Assembly: GCA_018672475.1 (NCBI GenBank)
Contig: JABHFS010000024.1
Span: 1-64,000, forward strand
DNA length: 64,000 nucleotides
Origin: Gemmatimonadota bacterium
GTDB lineage: Bacteria; Latescibacterota; UBA2968; UBA8231
Reading direction: 5' to 3'
The notes beneath the pieces were generated by a model. It was not told the DNA's origin and ran no database searches. It saw nothing but the letters and a program-made list of their open reading frames with translations. Positions 34,956 to 60,081 of the stretch are shown here, one piece after another. A program made the translations under genes and the position numbers. The number at the start of each line of letters is the position of its first letter. The first letter of the stretch is position 1.

Positions 34956-36111
34956 TATGAAAATCACCGATGTGATTCTGCACAAAGTTGTCGTGCCGAT
35001 GCGGCCTAGTGCGGTGCACTCTGAAGGCGTCGAGGACAAGCTTTGTGCGCCTGATCCGGTCACCGGCCGTTCGTTAAACTTCTGGGAATTCCCCAAGTGG
35101 ATTGTCGAGTTGGTCGCCGACAATGGCCTGGTCGGTCTGGGCGAACCGCGCCGTGGCGATCTTTACGCTCCGCTCTGCGCATATGCTGAGCAGATCATTG
35201 GTAAGACGTTGCAAGAGTTGCCGGTGGGCAATTTGCCGCTGCCGCACGGCGACGACTACGAGTCGTATATCATCTACGAAGCCTATGAGATGGCCTGGTT
35301 GGATTTGTTGGGTAAACATCTGGGCGTGCCGGTGCATCACTTATTGGGCGGCAAAAAAATTGACCGGGTTCCGATCGATTTCTGGATGGGACGCGGTACG
35401 CCGGAGGACACAGCCCGGCGCGCACAAATGGGCCTGGAAATGGGTTTTCGCGGACTCAAGATGAAGTGCGAGCTGGGCGACCCCATCGCAGAACGCGTCG
35501 CGGCGGTGAGGGAAGTTGCGCCGGATTTTTCTATCGTCTTGGACCCGAACGAGCGCTTTGTCGATCTTGACGGGGCGCGGGCGGTGGCCCGTTCCTTAGA
35601 GCGTTTTGATCGAGTCATCTTTGAAAGCCCGGTGCCGCAAGACCGTCTGGACTGGTATGTCGAGTTGCGCAGCCAGATTCCGCAGTCGATTGCGTTGCAC
35701 CTGACGTCGATAAATGATCTGTTGCCCGCGCTGCGACTGGAGGCAGCGGATCATTATAATTTGCTCGGTCCGTTGAAACAGTTCGTCGATTGGGCGACGC
35801 TGACACGCACGGCGGGTTGTGCGACCTGGCGCGGCACGGGCATGGACCTGGGGGTGCGTGATATGAGCAGCGTGCACGCGGCGGCGGCGGCCGGCTGTGA
35901 GTTGCCCAGCGATATTATCGGGCATCTGTTGCGAGAAGATGACCTGGTCGCCGAACCGATTGCGTTTGCCGACGGCAGCTTGATCGTGCCGGATGCGCCG
36001 GGGCTTGGTGTTGAGCTCGACCGCGTCGCGTTGGAAAGATACCGGGTTTCGCTTGCTGAGAATGAATTGGCCGTTGATGGCGGGCGGCGGGCGGCGACCG
36101 TTGGCATTTGA
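34948..36111 (+). CDS. mandelate racemase/muconate lactonizing enzyme family protein
   Basis: 387-residue enolase-superfamily enzyme. The KxK base motif is GLKMKCELGDP, metal ligands follow in IVLDPNERF (Asp) and VIFESPVP (Glu), and the C-terminal capping segment has PDAPGLGVELD. The N-terminal capping domain has WIVELVADNGLVGLGEPRRGD. The usual third ligand and the terminal His loop are not obvious, so the subgroup is unclear. A second Met (34957) is an alternative start. It overlaps the preceding unknown gene and is distinct in sequence from the enolase-superfamily gene at 18 kb. Confidence 0.85.
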   Translation: MADMKITDVILHKVVVPMRPSAVHSEGVEDKLCAPDPVTGRSLNFWEFPKWIVELVADNGLVGLGEPRRGDLYAPLCAYAEQIIGKTLQELPVGNLPLPHGDDYESYIIYEAYEMAWLDLLGKHLGVPVHHLLGGKKIDRVPIDFWMGRGTPEDTARRAQMGLEMGFRGLKMKCELGDPIAERVAAVREVAPDFSIVLDPNERFVDLDGARAVARSLERFDRVIFESPVPQDRLDWYVELRSQIPQSIALHLTSINDLLPALRLEAADHYNLLGPLKQFVDWATLTRTAGCATWRGTGMDLGVRDMSSVHAAAAAGCELPSDIIGHLLREDDLVAEPIAFADGSLIVPDAPGLGVELDRVALERYRVSLAENELAVDGGRRAATVGI

Positions 36112-36250
36112 CGACTTCGCGCCGTGACGAAAGCAGAGAACGATGAGTAATGGCGAATTTCCCTGCGTGTCTTCACTGGAGAATACGAGCAAATTTGGTG
36201 TCCTATCGTGGGGATTTTGTGCAGAGACTTGCACCGATCTATATTAGAGT

Positions 36251-36381
36251 TGTCGCGTATTAAGCTGAATTTTGCTCGTAAAATACTGAAAAATATGGCC
36301 TTTGCAGAGCTTTGATTTTCAATTTAGCAAGTCGCTGTTTTTATACGACTTAAGTGTATTTTTCTCGCTTATAGCGCGACA
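36251..36381 (+). repeat. MITE-like element, copy 1 (131 bp, terminal inverted repeats)
   Basis: AT-rich 131-bp unit. The left end TGTCGCGTATTAAGC is nearly the inverse complement of the right end (read inward on the other strand: TGTCGCGCTATAAGC). A second copy lies at 59864-59995; the first 44 bases are identical, then there are scattered substitutions and small indels. No reading frame. It ends 69 bases before the fourth secreted paralog. Confidence 0.85.
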
Positions 36382-36449
36382 TGTCTTATCGATATACTAG
36401 CATGAAATATCCTTATCAGTGGTTTGCTGGCCGCCCTTGGAGATGCGCA

Positions 36450-38834
36450 ATGAAGCGCCTATTGAATCAGATGTTGAGTTTGGCCGCCGTCGCCGTGCTA
36501 CTGCCGTCGGCTACGGGCCTGATGGCTGAGAATCTTGTCTTTAGCGGGACGGACTTCGAGTCTTGGAATCCTCCGAAGGGCTTGGTCGAGGTGCACGCCG
36601 ACGGCATTGAGATTAAGCGTTTCGGTAAGTCGTTCAACGCGGTGGCCGATGCGCACGAGTATTCATCCGTAGTTATCGGCGATCTGTACGGCAGTGTTCG
36701 TCCTGCGCGCACGCCTTCAAACCAGGCCGATGCACATCTAATCGCCGATCAGGACCCCAGGACCTGGTGGAAACCCGCGGCAGAGGACCCGCCGGATAAA
36801 TTCTGGGTGGAACTCGATCTGGGGCGGGCGGTGATCGCCGACAAGATCCGCGTGATCTTCCCCGATACCACGGGCGCGCGCCCCTTCACCTTTTTTTCGG
36901 TCTTCACCAGTCCCGGGGTGCCGGTCAGTTTTGGCGGGGGCAAGCGGATCGTTTTCGATCGCGTTGGTAAGACAATCAATAATAATACCATGCGCGTGGT
37001 TGAATTCGAGCTTGAGGTGAAGGACGACCCAGAACAGAAGTTTTCGCCGGTGCGCTTTGTGCGTTTTGAGGCAACGGGGCGCACGCCCGACGCAGCGCTG
37101 GCTGAGATCGAGGTCGACGCCGTTGGTTTCAATCTGTCTTCCAAGGTCACGATCGAACGTCGACTGGAGTCCGGTGATGCGGGCTGGGGGGGCCGGACAT
37201 GGAGCTCGGATTCCCGCGAGTGTGTGGATCGCGCCTGCGGCCGGGGCAGCGGTGCCGAGGCATTGCTTGATGAGGACATGGCGTTTCGCAAATGGAATAT
37301 CGAGGCCGTGATCGTCAGTGGTGACTGGCGCGATTCGGGCTTCTGGGCCGTGGTCGATTTTGGCAATGTCTTCCGTGTCGACCGGGCAGTGTGGATCCCG
37401 GGCAATGGGCCCTTCACCTACTCCGTTTACAAACCAGTGGCCACGCATAGTACACTACAGGCTCATTGTGATTTCTCTGTGCAAGAGATATTTACCTCAG
37501 ACGGATCGCCTAGCAAGACCTCTGTTGCGGATGTAGAGGGTCCCTTTGATTACGAATCGCTCGCGGCTGATACGGGTTCCAAGGGCATCTACGATTTCCA
37601 ATTCCCGTCGCGGCCGGTGCGTTTTTTCAACTGGCGCGTGCCCAATGGCCGCGGTAATTGCCGCGCCCTGCAGCTATGGGTCTTCCACAGCGAGGGCTAC
37701 CCTGCTTCGGTCTCCCTGCAATCGGACGACATATCGTTGGGTGGGGCCCGCAGCATCAGTCGCATCGAGTGGGATGCGGACTTGCCGCCGGGGACGCGGA
37801 TTGAGGTACAGACGCAAACGGGCAATGGTTTTCAGTCGATTAGACGCTATTACCTTGCCAATGGCAATGAAGTTACGAAGGAGGGCTACGAGGCGGCGAA
37901 ATCGCGCCAAAAAGGGGATATCGTCGATGAGGACATCCGCGATCCCTCATGGAGCGATTGGAGTAACCCACACCGGTTACCGGGCCAGGCTTTCCAGTCG
38001 CCATCACCCCGGCAGTGGTTGCAGGCGCGCGTCACGCTGAGCAGCGACGACCCCGAGGTTTTTCCGACCCTGCGCTCGCTGACCTTTATCGCTAATGATC
38101 CGGTTATTACCTCCGGGTTGAGCGGATATGTGTTCCCGCGGGAGGCGGCGCTGGACTCGCTGATGGAGTTCCGCTATATCATCAAGCCGGTGTCGTTTCG
38201 TAGCACGGATGTCGGTTTCGATCAGGTGCTGATCGTACTGCCTCCAGGTAGCACTGAGGCTGAACTGGTAAGTGCGACGGTTGGGGGGGTGAAAAGCGAT
38301 GCCACTAGTTTGCTGAAAGGGGACTCATTGCTGGTGCAATTGGCCCAGGAGGCTGTAAAGCGCGACTCGGTTGAGATCATTTTTAAGACGCGTGTATTCG
38401 AGAGTCCGACGGTTTTTGAAACGCTCGTGTCCAGTTCCACCGAGCAAGAGAACATGCAAGGGGTGCTACCCGAGTTTGTCGGGGCCGACCAGGTTTTCGT
38501 GCCACAAGCGGTTACGGGCGGAGGGCTGATTCGCAATGTCAGCCACAATGAGATATTTACGCCGAACCAGGATGGGGTCAACGACCTTTACGAGTTGCGT
38601 TTTATTGTGGTGAAAACTGGCGAGAAACCACAGGTGCGGGTTTTCTCCCTGGATGGGGTCCAGGTGGCTGAACTGGAGCATGCCGGCTCCCAGAGCAATG
38701 AGGCGAAATTTGCGTGGGATGGTGGCGTAGGGACCGGTCAGACGGTGTCGCCGGGCGTATACGTGGTGCGTATCGAGGTCCCGGCGAATGCCAAAAATGA
38801 GGTCATGCAGAAGATCGTGCACGTAGTGTATTGA
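36450..38834 (+). CDS. fourth secreted discoidin-like protein with CHU_C/FlgD-type C-terminus
   Basis: About 794 residues, intact. Start at 36450 (MKRLLNQMLSLAAVAVLLPS signal peptide, GGAG eight bases before). Then FSGTDFESWNPPKGLVEVHADG, equivalent to the N-terminal region of the paralogs with Trp kept; a discoidin-like module LIADQDPRTWWKPAAEDPPDKFW...DLGRAVIADKIRV; a second around WAVVDFGNVFRVDRAVW; the central IEWDADLPPGTRIEVQTQTGN; QAFQSPSPRQWLQARV; and a C-terminal EIFTPNQDGVNDLYEL...RVFSLDGVQ...GVYVVRIEV domain. It ends in HVVY as the others end in VVY/VAY/IAY. Upstream lies the MITE-like repeat; downstream a terminator. Confidence 0.85.
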   Translation: MKRLLNQMLSLAAVAVLLPSATGLMAENLVFSGTDFESWNPPKGLVEVHADGIEIKRFGKSFNAVADAHEYSSVVIGDLYGSVRPARTPSNQADAHLIADQDPRTWWKPAAEDPPDKFWVELDLGRAVIADKIRVIFPDTTGARPFTFFSVFTSPGVPVSFGGGKRIVFDRVGKTINNNTMRVVEFELEVKDDPEQKFSPVRFVRFEATGRTPDAALAEIEVDAVGFNLSSKVTIERRLESGDAGWGGRTWSSDSRECVDRACGRGSGAEALLDEDMAFRKWNIEAVIVSGDWRDSGFWAVVDFGNVFRVDRAVWIPGNGPFTYSVYKPVATHSTLQAHCDFSVQEIFTSDGSPSKTSVADVEGPFDYESLAADTGSKGIYDFQFPSRPVRFFNWRVPNGRGNCRALQLWVFHSEGYPASVSLQSDDISLGGARSISRIEWDADLPPGTRIEVQTQTGNGFQSIRRYYLANGNEVTKEGYEAAKSRQKGDIVDEDIRDPSWSDWSNPHRLPGQAFQSPSPRQWLQARVTLSSDDPEVFPTLRSLTFIANDPVITSGLSGYVFPREAALDSLMEFRYIIKPVSFRSTDVGFDQVLIVLPPGSTEAELVSATVGGVKSDATSLLKGDSLLVQLAQEAVKRDSVEIIFKTRVFESPTVFETLVSSSTEQENMQGVLPEFVGADQVFVPQAVTGGGLIRNVSHNEIFTPNQDGVNDLYELRFIVVKTGEKPQVRVFSLDGVQVAELEHAGSQSNEAKFAWDGGVGTGQTVSPGVYVVRIEVPANAKNEVMQKIVHVVY

Positions 38835-43398: not shown

Positions 43399-43476
43399 TG
43401 GTCGGGGTGCTCGGATTCGAACCGAGGACCCCCTGCTCCCAAAGCAGGTGCGCTAGCCGGGCTGCGCCACACCCCG
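43399..43476 (-). tRNA. tRNA-Pro (anticodon TGG), CCA encoded
   Basis: On the minus strand CGGGGTG pairs with CACCCCG as the acceptor stem. The anticodon stem CCTGC/GCAGG holds the loop TTTGGGA with anticodon TGG. The T-loop is TTCGAAT in a CTCGG/CCGAG stem. Discriminator A and CCA are encoded at 43402-43399. A terminator follows directly. Confidence 0.95.
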
Positions 43477-45424: not shown

Positions 45425-45466
45425 GAAAAGGGAAAAGATTGCCTCGGGGCCGTAAGGCCCCGAGGC
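45425..45466 (-). terminator. rho-independent terminator after rnpB
   Basis: A perfect 11-bp stem, GCCTCGGGGCC (45441-45451) with GGCCCCGAGGC (45456-45466), tetraloop GTAA, followed on the minus strand by T-rich AATCTTTTCCCTTTT. Confidence 0.85.
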
Positions 45467-45472
45467 GAAGGA

Positions 45473-45840
45473 GTGGGTCTATAAGCCGAGTTCTGTCCAC
45501 ACGCCTTGCGGCGCGTTGTGCGGGCATTCATCTGGGGCGACGGTTACCCGATCGCCTCGGTGCGGCCTACCCGGGAATGATAACGAGGCGGACCACCTCT
45601 CTCCCCCTATTTGGCCTTGCTCCGGATGAGGTTTTCCCTGCCACCTACGTCACCGCAGGCGCGGTGAGCTCTTACCTCACCATTTCACCCTTACCCGGGG
45701 TAAACCGGGCGGTATATTTTCTGTGGCACTGTCTGTGGGGTCACCCCCCCTGGGCGTTACCCAGCATCCTGTCCTGCGGAGCTCGGACTTTCCTCACCGC
45801 CGGTCCGAAGACCGGCAAGCGCGCCCGCCCGACCCACTCC
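45473..45840 (-). ncRNA. rnpB: RNase P RNA (bacterial type A)
   Basis: Catalytic RNA that matures tRNA 5' ends. Read on the minus strand it shows the conserved GAGGAAAGTCCGAGCTCC, GGTAAGGGTGAAA, GTAAGAGCTCACCG, AGAGAGGTGG-type core segments, the GCAGGGAAAACC region and the terminal ACAGAACTCGGCTTATAGACC. The first bases GGGTC pair with the last GACCC to form P1. Exact ends are within a few bases. The 5' end abuts the stop of the zinc-ribbon gene, so it may partly be transcribed from that promoter. Confidence 0.95.
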
Positions 45841-52153: not shown

Positions 52154-53890
52154 TCAATGCGAAAATGCTTTGAAAGGATTGGCTCCAGTTTCTATAATCG
52201 AGTGCGCGCCTTGCTGCTGCACAGCGATCATCCTATCGACGGGTAAATTGCGAAGAATAGTGGATGTTCCGTTGGGCCATATGATGTCGAGTTGGTCGAT
52301 TTCCTGAACGGTTCCGAGACCAAAATGTGCTGTTATATCGCTATGTGAGAGATAGCTGCCGGCTCCGCTCACATAGCGCCATTGGCTCTGATCTCCAGCC
52401 CGTAGATGGATGCGCGAACCAATGCCGTCGCGATTATCACCCGAGCAAAACAGGCGCACGGAAACCCAGTGGTTCGCCTGTCCCAATTCGTTGCGCAATA
52501 GCGTAGCACCATCGTTCAGTTCGGTTACAAATACATCTACATCACCATCGCTATCGTAGTCTCCGAAGGATGCACCGCGGCTCACCTTGTCTTGCAGGTG
52601 GGCTGCGATATCCACGGGCCTGAAACGCCCATTGCCGTGGTTCTCGAATAGCTGGTTGGGCTGTCGATAGTTAGAGCCGGTTTCGACTCGCTCTACTTGG
52701 GGGTAGACGTGCCCGTTGGCAACGAATAGATCTAGTAGCCCGTCGTTATTATAGTCGAAAAAACGAGTTCCCCAACCTATCAGATCTATGGTGGGGGCCG
52801 CGAGGCCAGCCGTGGTGGTGGCATCGCTAAAGCGCGTGCCGTCCTCATTGCGATATAGCGTGTTGGTTTCGGTGAAGAAATGGGTTACGTATATGTCCGG
52901 ATCGCCGTCATTGTCATAATCGCCGAAGTCTACACCCATGCCGGCTTCGGTGTCGCCGTCGCCGTTATAGGCTACGCCGGCTATCAATGCCACGTCGTCA
53001 AAGGTTCCATCCCCGTTGTTATGAAATAGCACATTCGGCGTTTCGTCATTGGCGACAAATAGGTCGGGTAAGCCATCGTGGTTGTAGTCTGCTGTGACCA
53101 CCCCGAGACCGTAATACCGATTGGCCTTTGATACACCAGACGGATCGGTGACATCGGTGTATTGTCCATGGCCTTCATTGCGGTACAGCACGTCGGCGGC
53201 TCCGACCAACCCCTTGGGACCGCAATAGACCTTGATGCCGCCGTAAAAGCTACAAAGCGCTGGTTTTTCGGGACGATTTAAAGCATCGAATACGACATAA
53301 TTGCTGACGTAGAGATCAAGGTCGCCGTCGAGGTCGAAATCGAAAAATGCAGCACTGGCACTGAACGCGTCTCCGCCTACGGCAGCTATCTGGGTATGGT
53401 CTGTGAAAGTATTGCCATTCCCCCCACCATTCATGTACAGTGTGTTAGAGCCGTAGTTGGACAGGTAGAGGTCGCGATACCCGTCATTATTTATGTCCCC
53501 TACGGCTACTCCGGTGCTCCAGCCCGCATGACCTGTGCCGCTGGCCACAGTGGCGTCGGTGAAGGTGCCTTCGCCCGTATTACGATATAGTACATTACCT
53601 GGTCCCGATTGTTCCAGATATGTTGAAAATGTTGAGCCATTGGCAATATAGAGATCGAGGTCGCCATCGTTATCGGCGTCAAAGAAGGCCGCGCCACTAC
53701 CGTGGGCTTCGAGGATAAAGCGTTTTTCAGGATCACCGCAGGTGTTGTAGTATGCGATCCCCGCTGCTGCGGTTTGGTCTGTAAAAGGGGGTTGCGCTGG
53801 ATGACTAGATGTCGCACAAAGTAGCAAGGCCATCAGCCCTATAAGCACTATACGCAATATTAGAGATGGGTGGGGCAGGCACCGATTCAT
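52154..53890 (-). CDS. secreted CRTAC1-like protein with FG-GAP repeats and ASPIC/UnbV domain
   Basis: 578 residues with a signal peptide (LRIVLIGLMALLLCATSSHPAQ). Then a chain of FG-GAP/VCBS calcium-binding loops: FFDADNDGDLDLYIANG, VGDINNDGYRDLYLSNY, FFDFDLDGDLDLYVSNY, TADYNHDGLPDLFVAND and others, forming a beta-propeller. The C-terminal ASPIC/UnbV module is ANHWVSVRLFCSGDNRDGIGSRIHLRAGDQSQWRYVSG with FGLGTVQEIDQLDIIWPNG. It starts in an ATGA overlap with the upstream TPR/FG-GAP gene. Adhesion or surface scaffold functions are inferred. Confidence 0.85.
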   Translation of the reverse strand: MNRCLPHPSLILRIVLIGLMALLLCATSSHPAQPPFTDQTAAAGIAYYNTCGDPEKRFILEAHGSGAAFFDADNDGDLDLYIANGSTFSTYLEQSGPGNVLYRNTGEGTFTDATVASGTGHAGWSTGVAVGDINNDGYRDLYLSNYGSNTLYMNGGGNGNTFTDHTQIAAVGGDAFSASAAFFDFDLDGDLDLYVSNYVVFDALNRPEKPALCSFYGGIKVYCGPKGLVGAADVLYRNEGHGQYTDVTDPSGVSKANRYYGLGVVTADYNHDGLPDLFVANDETPNVLFHNNGDGTFDDVALIAGVAYNGDGDTEAGMGVDFGDYDNDGDPDIYVTHFFTETNTLYRNEDGTRFSDATTTAGLAAPTIDLIGWGTRFFDYNNDGLLDLFVANGHVYPQVERVETGSNYRQPNQLFENHGNGRFRPVDIAAHLQDKVSRGASFGDYDSDGDVDVFVTELNDGATLLRNELGQANHWVSVRLFCSGDNRDGIGSRIHLRAGDQSQWRYVSGAGSYLSHSDITAHFGLGTVQEIDQLDIIWPNGTSTILRNLPVDRMIAVQQQGAHSIIETGANPFKAFSH

Positions 53891-56205
53891 TTCTGCTCCG
53901 GTTCGGTAATCCGAATGACTTGATTGGCATCAAAAGGACCATACTGCTCTTTGCGCCCCGAAGGCCACCGTATTTCGACGCGTTCGACCCGGTTACGGTT
54001 GCCGAGACCGAATTCCAGTGCGAAAGAATCGGTCGAACCAAAGCCGCCGCCACTATGAACCTGCGCGATTTGTGACCGATCACCGCTGTATATCCGGGCT
54101 TGAGCGCCGATGGCGTTGTGGTTCGGTGGGTGGCCTGTAAGGACGATGTGGATCCATTGGGCTTGAGTGCCCTCATTGCGATAAAGACTATTTTTCCACA
54201 GGTCACCCGGATAGTGGCCACCGTGGCCAACATAGAGATCGAGATCGCCATCGGCATCGTAGTCAGCAAAGGCTACACCATGTCCTTTGCCGAGATTGTC
54301 GACACCAGCGTCTGCGGCTACGTCGACGTAGCCGTCATTGCGGCGAACAAAAAGTGCATTCGGCTCGAAGCGTGGCATGATAGGCCCGCCGTTAGCTAGG
54401 TAAATGTCGATATTCCCATCGTTGTCTACGTCGCCGAATCCAGCGCCCATCGATCCAAAAGCGCGAGCGATCCCTAACTCCGCGGCATATTCGCGGAATG
54501 TGCTATTGTCTTCGTTGAGGTATAAGTACGATCTACTGCGATGCCCGCGACTACCGGTAGTCGCGGATGTGACGAAGTCTTCGTAGTAGGCCATCGCCGA
54601 GACGAAAAGATCAAGGTCGCCATCGTTGTCGCTGTCAAAGAAAAAAGGCACATAGCTGCCATTTATGGGGCGGCTGACACCGGTCGCTTCGGCGACATCG
54701 TTAAACTGCGTTCCGTCGTTGCGCAATAGTCGATTGGGATCGGCGACATTAGCGACGTAGAGATCGAGGTCGCCATTGCCGTCGTAATCTCCGAAAGCTA
54801 CTCCGAGCGAATTGCTACCGTCTGCTGCGGCTCGAAGCACTGCTTGATCTGCGAAGCTACCCTTACCGTCGTTGATATAAAGTTTGTTTGCAGCACCGCT
54901 ACCGGTTATACCGTCGGCGACATAAAGGTCGAGCCATCCATCGCCATCGACATCTCCCCAAGCGGCAGTAAAACTATCGTCCGGGTCATCCACTCCGGCC
55001 GCAGTCGCTACGTCCACAAAGTGACCCGTTCCGTCATTGTTGTATAGCGAATTGGTCGCTGCCCCTTCCCAGGCATCTCTCGTAACATAAAGGTCGATGT
55101 CGCCATCGCCATCATAGTCGGCGGATACGGCCGCCCAGCCGCCGCGCGCGTCGTTAAGGCCAGCGGCACTCGCGGTGGACAGGAAACGATCGTTGCGGGC
55201 AAGAAATAAGCCATGTTGGGTCTGAATACCAACCGAGAACAAGTCCAAATCTCCGTCTCCATTAAAGTCGGCCCACGCGACGCCACGCCCGCGATCGAGC
55301 TTAGCCACCCCTACGTGCTCAGCTATATCTGTGAATTGGTTCGGTGCCTTTGCCGCTACGGGTAGCGAAGCTATCCTATAGCGCGGCTCCAAATTTCCAG
55401 GATATACTCCATGTTGGGCGAGATACGCTACCCGTAGATTCCACAACCTAACCGGGAGAAGCGGTGAAGCGGCGGGCAATGAGTTGATGGCTGTTTTGTA
55501 GGCCGTCACGGCCTCGGCGTACGACCCTTGCCAGTGCAGGGCAGTACCGAGCAGAAATGTCAGGTGTGGATCGTTCGGTTTACTCTTTAGTAGCATCTTG
55601 AAATCGCGGCTGGCATCAGCAAAAAGACCTAATCGCAGACGGGAGGCGGCTGCCCCAGCCTGGGCACGCTGCAAGCTTGGATCTACGGTAAGGACAGCCT
55701 CATACTGCTCTAACGCACGCTGGGGGCTCGGAGGAGCGTCTGTCATCAGTAGATCTGCGTAGGCCATGCAGGCAGGGGTGAAGGCCGGAAATTGTCCGAC
55801 GATTTCCTCCAGCATGGCGCGTGCCTCGTCATCGCGACGGAGCATACGATAGACCAGTGCTAACTGGAATGGAGCCTCAACGCGGCGCGCTTGTGCTCGC
55901 ATGGCTCGTTGTAGTTGGGGGATGGCTGCATGCAAGGCGCGCTTGCGAATATTGATCTCAGCCAACCCGAGTAGCGCCATATATTCGCTCGAATCGGCCT
56001 TGACTATTTGGGCAAATAAGACGCCTGCTGAATCTAAATTAGAGCGGCCAACTAGAATCTCGGCTCGCTTATACAACTCGGCGATAGGTGTCGGATCTAT
56101 GCGTGGTGTGGGATTTTCAACTGCGCAGGCTATAAGGGCGATTACGAAAAAAAACTGAATAAATGCACGGCCTTGTTGAGGTCGGGAGAGTATTGGGTCA
56201 CTCAA
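53887..56205 (-). CDS. TPR plus FG-GAP plus ASPIC/UnbV fusion protein
   Basis: 772 residues. N-terminal lipoprotein-like or signal segment (AFIQFFFVIALIACAVENP), then about six TPR units (residues 40-260), then FG-GAP loops (WADFNGDGDLDLFSVG, SADYDGDGDIDLYVTRD, WGDVDGDGWLDLYVADG, FFDSDNDGDLDLFVSAM, FGDVDNDGNIDIYLANG), and a C-terminal ASPIC/UnbV module (AQWIHIVLTGHPPNHNAIGAQARI...SFALEFGLGNRNRVERVEIRWPSG). The TPR and propeller in one chain link a scaffold with a secreted beta-propeller. It overlaps both neighbours by 8 and 4 bases, so it is tightly coupled to them. Confidence 0.85.
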   Translation of the reverse strand: MSDPILSRPQQGRAFIQFFFVIALIACAVENPTPRIDPTPIAELYKRAEILVGRSNLDSAGVLFAQIVKADSSEYMALLGLAEINIRKRALHAAIPQLQRAMRAQARRVEAPFQLALVYRMLRRDDEARAMLEEIVGQFPAFTPACMAYADLLMTDAPPSPQRALEQYEAVLTVDPSLQRAQAGAAASRLRLGLFADASRDFKMLLKSKPNDPHLTFLLGTALHWQGSYAEAVTAYKTAINSLPAASPLLPVRLWNLRVAYLAQHGVYPGNLEPRYRIASLPVAAKAPNQFTDIAEHVGVAKLDRGRGVAWADFNGDGDLDLFSVGIQTQHGLFLARNDRFLSTASAAGLNDARGGWAAVSADYDGDGDIDLYVTRDAWEGAATNSLYNNDGTGHFVDVATAAGVDDPDDSFTAAWGDVDGDGWLDLYVADGITGSGAANKLYINDGKGSFADQAVLRAAADGSNSLGVAFGDYDGNGDLDLYVANVADPNRLLRNDGTQFNDVAEATGVSRPINGSYVPFFFDSDNDGDLDLFVSAMAYYEDFVTSATTGSRGHRSRSYLYLNEDNSTFREYAAELGIARAFGSMGAGFGDVDNDGNIDIYLANGGPIMPRFEPNALFVRRNDGYVDVAADAGVDNLGKGHGVAFADYDADGDLDLYVGHGGHYPGDLWKNSLYRNEGTQAQWIHIVLTGHPPNHNAIGAQARIYSGDRSQIAQVHSGGGFGSTDSFALEFGLGNRNRVERVEIRWPSGRKEQYGPFDANQVIRITEPEQK

Positions 56206-59410: not shown

Positions 59411-59431
59411 TCTAAAGCACCAACTAAACAA

Positions 59432-59863
59432 TATTGTGAATATTTTTCTTAAGTTGTTGATAAATAGGGACTTACGTAGACTGTCATTGAAACATGTAAC
59501 CTATTGATAAGTAAGCATTTACGAATTACTACATTATACAAATTCACTCAAAATGGAAAAAGTGTCCACAGTATTGACTAAAGTCGGGTGCGTTTTACAA
59601 AACTTGGCCGCACGGTTCAATCACTCTATAGCCCGTTGATATTTGCCAACGGTTTTAAAAGCACTTTTAGTAATTTCAATAATCTTTGCGTTAGCACTAT
59701 GTGTCCAATTATAAAGATTCTCTCCTCCCCATCCAACGATTTTTTTCAATTTCTTAGCCAGCGAGACGAGTATAAATGGGAAACTTAACATTTTTGACAT
59801 TTCTTTAGGAGGGGACACAAATGTCCAAGACAGGCGACTGTATCCAAGACAGGCAACTAGCGT
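59432..59863. other. AT-rich intergenic stretch with short tandem repeat
   Basis: This stretch is clearly more AT-rich than its surroundings. Near 59822-59860 the unit TCCAAGACAGGC occurs twice, 19 bases apart, and a GGACA-CAAA-TGTCC palindrome is at 59813-59826. A short minus-strand frame lies within it (see separate entry). Confidence 0.5.
59621..59818 (-). CDS. short AT-rich frame, uncertain
   Basis: A 65-codon frame starting at GTG: SPPKEMSKMLSFPFILVSLA...KKLKKIVGWGGENLYNWTH. It has a hydrophobic then basic stretch and AT-rich codons unlike the neighbours. No ribosome-binding site and no recognised family. It could be a small acquired gene, the end of a truncated one, or chance. Confidence 0.2.
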   Translation of the reverse strand: MSPPKEMSKMLSFPFILVSLAKKLKKIVGWGGENLYNWTHSANAKIIEITKSAFKTVGKYQRAIE

Positions 59864-59995
59864 TGTCGCGTATTAAGCTGAATTTTGCTCGTAAAATACT
59901 GAAAAATCTGGCATTTGCAGAGATTTAGTTTGCCAATTTTCTCAAGTCGCTGTTTTTATGCGGTTTAAGTAGTATTTTCCGCTTATAGCGCGACA
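59864..59995 (+). repeat. MITE-like element, copy 2 (132 bp, terminal inverted repeats)
   Basis: Same unit as at 36251-36381, in the same orientation relative to the downstream gene, with the same terminal inverted repeats TGTCGCG...CGCGACA. The first 44 bases are identical to copy 1, as is the block AAGTCGCTGTTTTTAT. It ends 228 bases before a secreted-protein gene. Confidence 0.85.
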
Positions 59996-60081
59996 TGTCT
60001 ACTTATCTTACGTGCTCGTTATGTCACAATATGGGTACAAAAATAGTGTAGCCAATTGGTTAGTTATAACGGGTAAAAATC

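What the first reader, a model, noticed from the sequence alone, without database searches (positions are those of the whole stretch)
36251..36381. Dispersed 131-132 bp MITE-like element with terminal inverted repeats, two copies
Copies at 36251-36381 and 59864-59995 share 44 identical leading bases and near-identical ends that form an imperfect 15-base inverted repeat (TGTCGCG...GCGCGACA). No coding capacity. Both lie upstream of genes for secreted proteins in the same orientation, so they may be mobile, regulatory or both.
Basis: seen in the sequence. Interest (0 to 1): 0.7.

Follow-up and report, generated by a model that had tools for sequence, protein, structure and literature searches.

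The report
Small IS5-type MITE in Latescibacterota
The repeat is a 139-base non-coding hitchhiker transposon (a MITE) that ends in the same sequence as an IS5-family insertion sequence in the same genome, and one copy is shown to be a clean insertion because a sister species has the empty site; it is an ordinary kind of mobile element in a little-studied bacterial phylum.

Summary
The true element is 139-140 bp, slightly longer than reported: 36247-36385 and 59860-59999. The genome holds five copies in two subfamilies (A: both window copies plus contig C72; B: C150 and C5), all in unrelated contexts. The decisive evidence is an empty site. A congener, Candidatus Latescibacterota SZUA-1027, aligns on both sides of copy 1 at 91-93% identity but lacks exactly 139 bp plus one TTA, so copy 1 is a precise insertion with a TTA duplication. 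The likely autonomous partner is present. Contig C5 carries a 1,029-bp IS whose two ends (GAGTTGTCGCG) match the MITE left end, and its HTH_Tnp_4/DDE_Tnp_4 transposase has a single premature stop. C140 carries a transposase fragment joined to an end of the MITE right-end type. No intact transposase was found in this draft genome. The 'upstream of secreted-protein genes' pattern does not extend to the other copies, and no promoter or Rfam RNA was found, so a regulatory role is unsupported, though copy 1 sits about 60 bp before the likely start codon. A new, low-copy member of a well-known kind, comparable to MITEAba12/ISAba12.

The parts
36247..36385 (+). MITE copy 1 (subfamily A), 139 bp
   Evidence: empty-site comparison with congener G005:C481; repeats genome-wide
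36244..36246 (.). left TTA target duplication of copy 1
   Evidence: congener has a single TTA at this point
36386..36388 (.). right TTA target duplication of copy 1
36247..36265 (+). left terminal inverted repeat, GAGTTGTCGCGTATTAAGC
   Evidence: first 11 bases identical to both ends of the C5 IS
36367..36385 (-). right terminal inverted repeat, read inward GACATGTCGCGCTATAAGC
   Evidence: same type as the end joined to the C140 transposase fragment, GACATGTCGCGCTATAGGC
59860..59999 (+). MITE copy 2 (subfamily A), 140 bp, flanked by TA on both sides

Best explanation
[quoted passage not shown] It is a 139-bp non-coding DNA element whose ends are bound and cut in trans by an IS5-family (HTH_Tnp_4/DDE_Tnp_4) transposase, and it inserts at A+T-rich TA-containing sites with a 2-3 bp duplication. 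Shown: repeat copies in unrelated places, matching termini on a resident IS and on an IS relic, and a precise insertion with a TTA duplication relative to a sister species. Inferred: that this transposase, or a lost or unassembled intact copy of it, moved the element. Any effect on the neighbouring gene is most likely incidental: copy 1 lies about 60 bp ahead of the likely start codon of a CHU_C-domain protein gene and must displace or replace its upstream region.
For: Five copies of 139-140 bp in two subfamilies. Flanks of the two window copies are unrelated. G005:C481 aligns at 91% and 93% to window 35717-36246 and 36386-37100, with the two blocks overlapping by 3 bases, TTA. The C5 IS of 1,029 bp has GAGTTGTCGCG at both tips, with a transposase in one frame and one stop, 44% identical to an intact Leptolyngbya boryana transposase. 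The C140 transposase fragment is joined to a MITE-type end. The L. boryana relative starts GAGTTGT, and two separate insertions are both flanked by TA. The TIR-paired single strand folds better than the shuffle mean in all five copies (z -4.1, -2.5, -1.3, -5.2, -2.9). Divergence of window copies 1 and 2 (about 10-13%) is no greater than the intergenic divergence between the two species at this locus (about 15%), in keeping with movement after they split.
Against: No intact transposase is in the assembly, which is a 92%-complete draft. Copies 1 (TTA), 2 (TA) and the C5 copy (TA) have matching flanks, while C72 and C150 do not show a clean duplication. The MITE interior does not match the IS, so it is not demonstrably an internal-deletion derivative. 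Only one of five sites had a usable empty site.
Confidence: 0.93

Rival explanations
1. The repeat is a conserved regulatory element or leader RNA of a small regulon for secreted proteins, and its similarity between sites reflects shared control.
For: Both window copies lie in the same orientation ahead of genes for apparently exported proteins (CHU_C-domain, CBM9-like). Paired ends could form a stem.
Against: The other copies lie between a Usp/PTS gene and a TauE gene, beside a degraded repeat region, and next to an IS near a Cys/Met-metabolism gene. The element is absent at the same locus in the congener, whose gene is conserved, and no convincing match was found in ten congeners. No Rfam match and no promoter-like site in copy 1.
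Confidence: 0.04
2. The copies are remnants of a larger segmental duplication.
For: Two copies are 23.6 kb apart in the same orientation.
Against: Similarity stops at the element ends, three more copies lie on other contigs, and copy 1 is a precise insertion.
Confidence: 0.01
3. The element is a MITE family that is now immobile in this genome: its transposase source is broken and the copies are fossils. (This rival concerns present activity, not identity, so it overlaps with the best explanation.)
For: Transposase copies found are interrupted; copies differ by 10-32%.
Against: The insertion of copy 1 post-dates the split from the congener unless the congener lost it precisely; the C5 transposase is one stop codon away from open, and the assembly is incomplete.
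Confidence: 0.3

Closest known systems
MITEAba12 / ISAba12 of Acinetobacter (PMC6382973)
   Same: Short (111-114 bp) non-coding element, non-identical TIRs matching those of a resident DDE-transposase IS of about 1 kb, identity to the IS confined to the TIRs, target duplication.
   Different: MITEAba12 has 9-bp duplications, 90 copies in many genomes, observed transposition and a transcript from an outward promoter; here there are 5 copies, a 2-3 bp duplication, and no seen transposition or transcript.
Nezha MITE of cyanobacteria (Zhou et al. 2008; cited in PMC10969869, features recalled from memory)
   Same: Recalled as about 134 bp with TIRs and 3-bp duplications; cyanobacteria also carry the closest relatives of this transposase found in plasmid records.
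   Different: Sequence comparison with Nezha was not made; its TIR is recalled as longer.
IS5-type IS of Leptolyngbya boryana plasmids (transposase WP_017291676.1)
   Same: Transposase 44% identical to the C5 IS transposase, ends GAGTTGTTGGG/CCCAACAACTC, TA flanks at two separate insertions.
   Different: Full IS of 1,007-1,008 bp with an intact gene; no MITE was sought there.

Membership tests
MITE | short, non-coding, no transposase gene | tested here: met
   139-140 bp, no transposase or ORF of note inside
MITE | terminal inverted repeats | tested here: met
   13-14 of 20 end bases pair in four copies, 11 of 20 in the fifth, against shuffles
MITE | multiple dispersed copies with unrelated flanks | tested here: met
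   five copies on four contigs
MITE | target-site duplication / precise empty site | tested here: met
   copy 1: TTA duplication, single TTA in congener; TA flanks for copy 2 and the C5 copy; not clear for C72 and C150
MITE | ends shared with an autonomous element able to move it | tested here: inconclusive
   matching ends on the C5 IS and C140 relic, but the transposase genes seen are interrupted
MITE | mobilisation in trans | not testable with these tools
   needs a transposition assay
IS5 family (for the partner IS on C5) | DDE transposase of the family | tested here: met
   HTH_Tnp_4 and DDE_Tnp_4 above Pfam cut-offs; NF033581 IS5 match to the C-terminal part, below its cut-off
IS5 family (for the partner IS on C5) | about 0.8-1.3 kb with short TIRs and short target duplication | tested here: met
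   1,029 bp, 11-bp perfect ends, TA flanks
IS5 family, IS427 subgroup (for the partner IS) | 2-bp duplication and phylogenetic placement in the subgroup | tested here: inconclusive
   TA flanks fit the 2-bp duplications listed for most IS427-group elements of Paracoccus (PMC3281130), but no ISfinder tree was built and copy 1 shows 3 bp

The most novel reading that the evidence does not exclude
Copy 1 has taken over the upstream region of the CHU_C-domain protein gene, so the MITE supplies or insulates its promoter and has rewired expression of a secreted protein in this species relative to its congener.
Probability: 0.12. Interest if true: 0.35.

Novelty: new member of a known kind. Interest (0 to 1): 0.2.

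Why it matters
It documents an IS5-type MITE with a resident partner and a demonstrated empty site in a Latescibacterota genome; the held papers searched gave no earlier report for this phylum. It is useful for annotation and suggests that this lineage's genomes carry several small TIR repeat families. It does not change any general picture.

Tried and rejected
Segmental duplication: rejected by unrelated flanks and the empty site. Known RNA family: no Rfam match in the window at these places or at the other copies. Promoter or terminator: nothing in copy 1, and in copy 2 only one weak minus-strand promoter match overlapping its right end. Homologues of the MITE: none at E <= 1e-5 in plasmid records, and none in the other 59 genomes of the relatives search beyond two 23-base chance-level matches. 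Empty sites for the other copies: copy 2 and C72 had no simple syntenic alignment; C5 flanks fall on two different contigs in the congener; C150 lies among other dispersed repeats. I first took the C5 transposase to be frameshifted from the ORF list; tblastn with the L. boryana protein shows one frame with a single stop. The one-mismatch TIR-like 13-mers on C4, C40, C76, C110, C125, C192 and C197 are no more numerous than the reversed-pattern control gives, and no partner end was seen near them. One protein comparison with the C140 relic failed because of stop codons in the chosen frame; the search and tblastn results already cover it.

Full report
Observation. The two copies are present as described, and blastn gives 87% identity over 142 bp. 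Similarity stops abruptly at both ends. With all copies compared, the element runs from GAG to GTC: 36247-36385 (139 bp) and 59860-59999 (140 bp), i.e. about 4 bases longer at each end than the reported span. The ends read inward are GAGTTGTCGCGTATTAAGC and GACATGTCGCGCTATAAGC. Over 20 bases 13-14 pair, reached by only 3-4 of 20,000 shuffles.

Other copies. The 6.6-Mb draft genome has a third full copy on C72 (81%), a diverged copy on C150 (69%), and a fifth on C5, which is 87% identical to the C150 copy by blastn. They form two subfamilies: A (both window copies and C72, 81-90% identical) and B (C150 and C5, 89%). Between the subfamilies identity is 68-72%, highest at the two ends. All are 139-140 bp. 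In a search of 60 genomes, no other genome (10 congeners and 49 further relatives) held a copy; the only hits were two 23-base chance-level matches.

Empty site. Window 35600-37100 aligns with G005:C481 in two blocks, 35717-36246 at 91% and 36386-37100 at 93%. They meet in G005 with a 3-base overlap. The filled site reads CTATATTA-[139 bp]-TTATCGATATAC and the congener CTACATTATTGCTGTAC, so one TTA was duplicated. G005 is Candidatus Latescibacterota SZUA-1027: its contig C856 has the same length as DQLG01000840.1 and the same sequence where compared. This places the window's genome in the same genus. The alternative of a precise loss in G005 is formally possible but less likely.

Partner. On C5 a 1,029-bp element has GAGTTGTCGCG at both tips in inverted orientation. 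Its transposase is open in one frame except for one TAA, aligns end to end with an intact L. boryana transposase at 44% identity, and carries HTH_Tnp_4 and DDE_Tnp_4. A B-subfamily MITE lies directly beside it. On C140 a transposase fragment, 63% identical to the C5 protein and with one stop, is joined to GACATGTCGCGCTATAGGCGGAAAA, i.e. the MITE right-end type. C12:4151 carries what looks like a solo 3' end of the IS. The L. boryana relative begins GAGTTGT, and two separate insertions have TA on both sides. Flanks in the home genome: TTA/TTA for copy 1 (which can also be read as TA plus a shared T), TA/TA for copy 2, the C5 MITE and the C5 IS, unclear for C72 and C150. This fits IS5-type transposases with 2-3 bp duplications: 2 bp is listed for most IS427-group elements of Paracoccus (PMC3281130), and 0, 2 or 3 bp for the eukaryotic Harbinger relatives of the family (PMC12730594).

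Mechanism. The element carries no transposase gene, so movement must be in trans by a transposase that recognises the ends. The resident IS is the best candidate. The transposases seen are broken, so the active source is either lost, or in the missing part of the assembly, or the single stop on C5 is an assembly error; this cannot be decided here. The MITE interior does not match the IS, as was also found for MITEAba12 and its IS (PMC6382973).

Regulation. Copy 1 and its duplication end about 60 bp before the likely start at 36450, and the downstream gene is conserved in the congener without the element, so the gene does not need it. The neighbours of the five copies share no function. The pattern scan shows no promoter-like site in copy 1 and one weak minus-strand match at the right end of copy 2; such scans are not tuned to this phylum. 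An effect on the CHU_C-domain gene is possible but untested.

Verdict. A real but ordinary MITE, new as a family, of a known kind.

Noticed in passing
window 59429-59576: A second small repeat family lies about 285 bp upstream of copy 2: about 148 bp with ends CAATACTGTGGACACTTTTT / AAAAAGTGTCCACAGTATTG. Relatives lie on C63 and C28 and in congener G005 on C195 and C514; probably another MITE family, shared between species.
   Followed up: partly
G000:C5:27435-28603 (L017 5436-6603): A B-subfamily MITE and the 1,029-bp IS lie side by side with almost no DNA between them (TAATA), as if one inserted at the border of the other.
   Followed up: partly
G000:C12:4151 (L021): Solo end TAGAGTTGTCGCGAAATCGGATTGTTTCA resembles the 3' end of the C5 IS with a short deletion; likely an IS remnant.
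   Followed up: no
L019 7959-8397 (G000:C150): Flank of the C150 copy consists of other dispersed repeats also found in G005 (75-89% identity), seemingly degraded IS sequence.
   Followed up: partly
window 45466-45840 (minus) and 43402-43476 (minus): Bacterial class A RNase P RNA and a tRNA gene, both Rfam matches above the gathering score.
   Followed up: no
window 52721-54795: Seven copies of a 42-nt direct repeat inside minus-strand ORFs, probably a protein repeat of the FG-GAP or calcium-binding kind.
   Followed up: no
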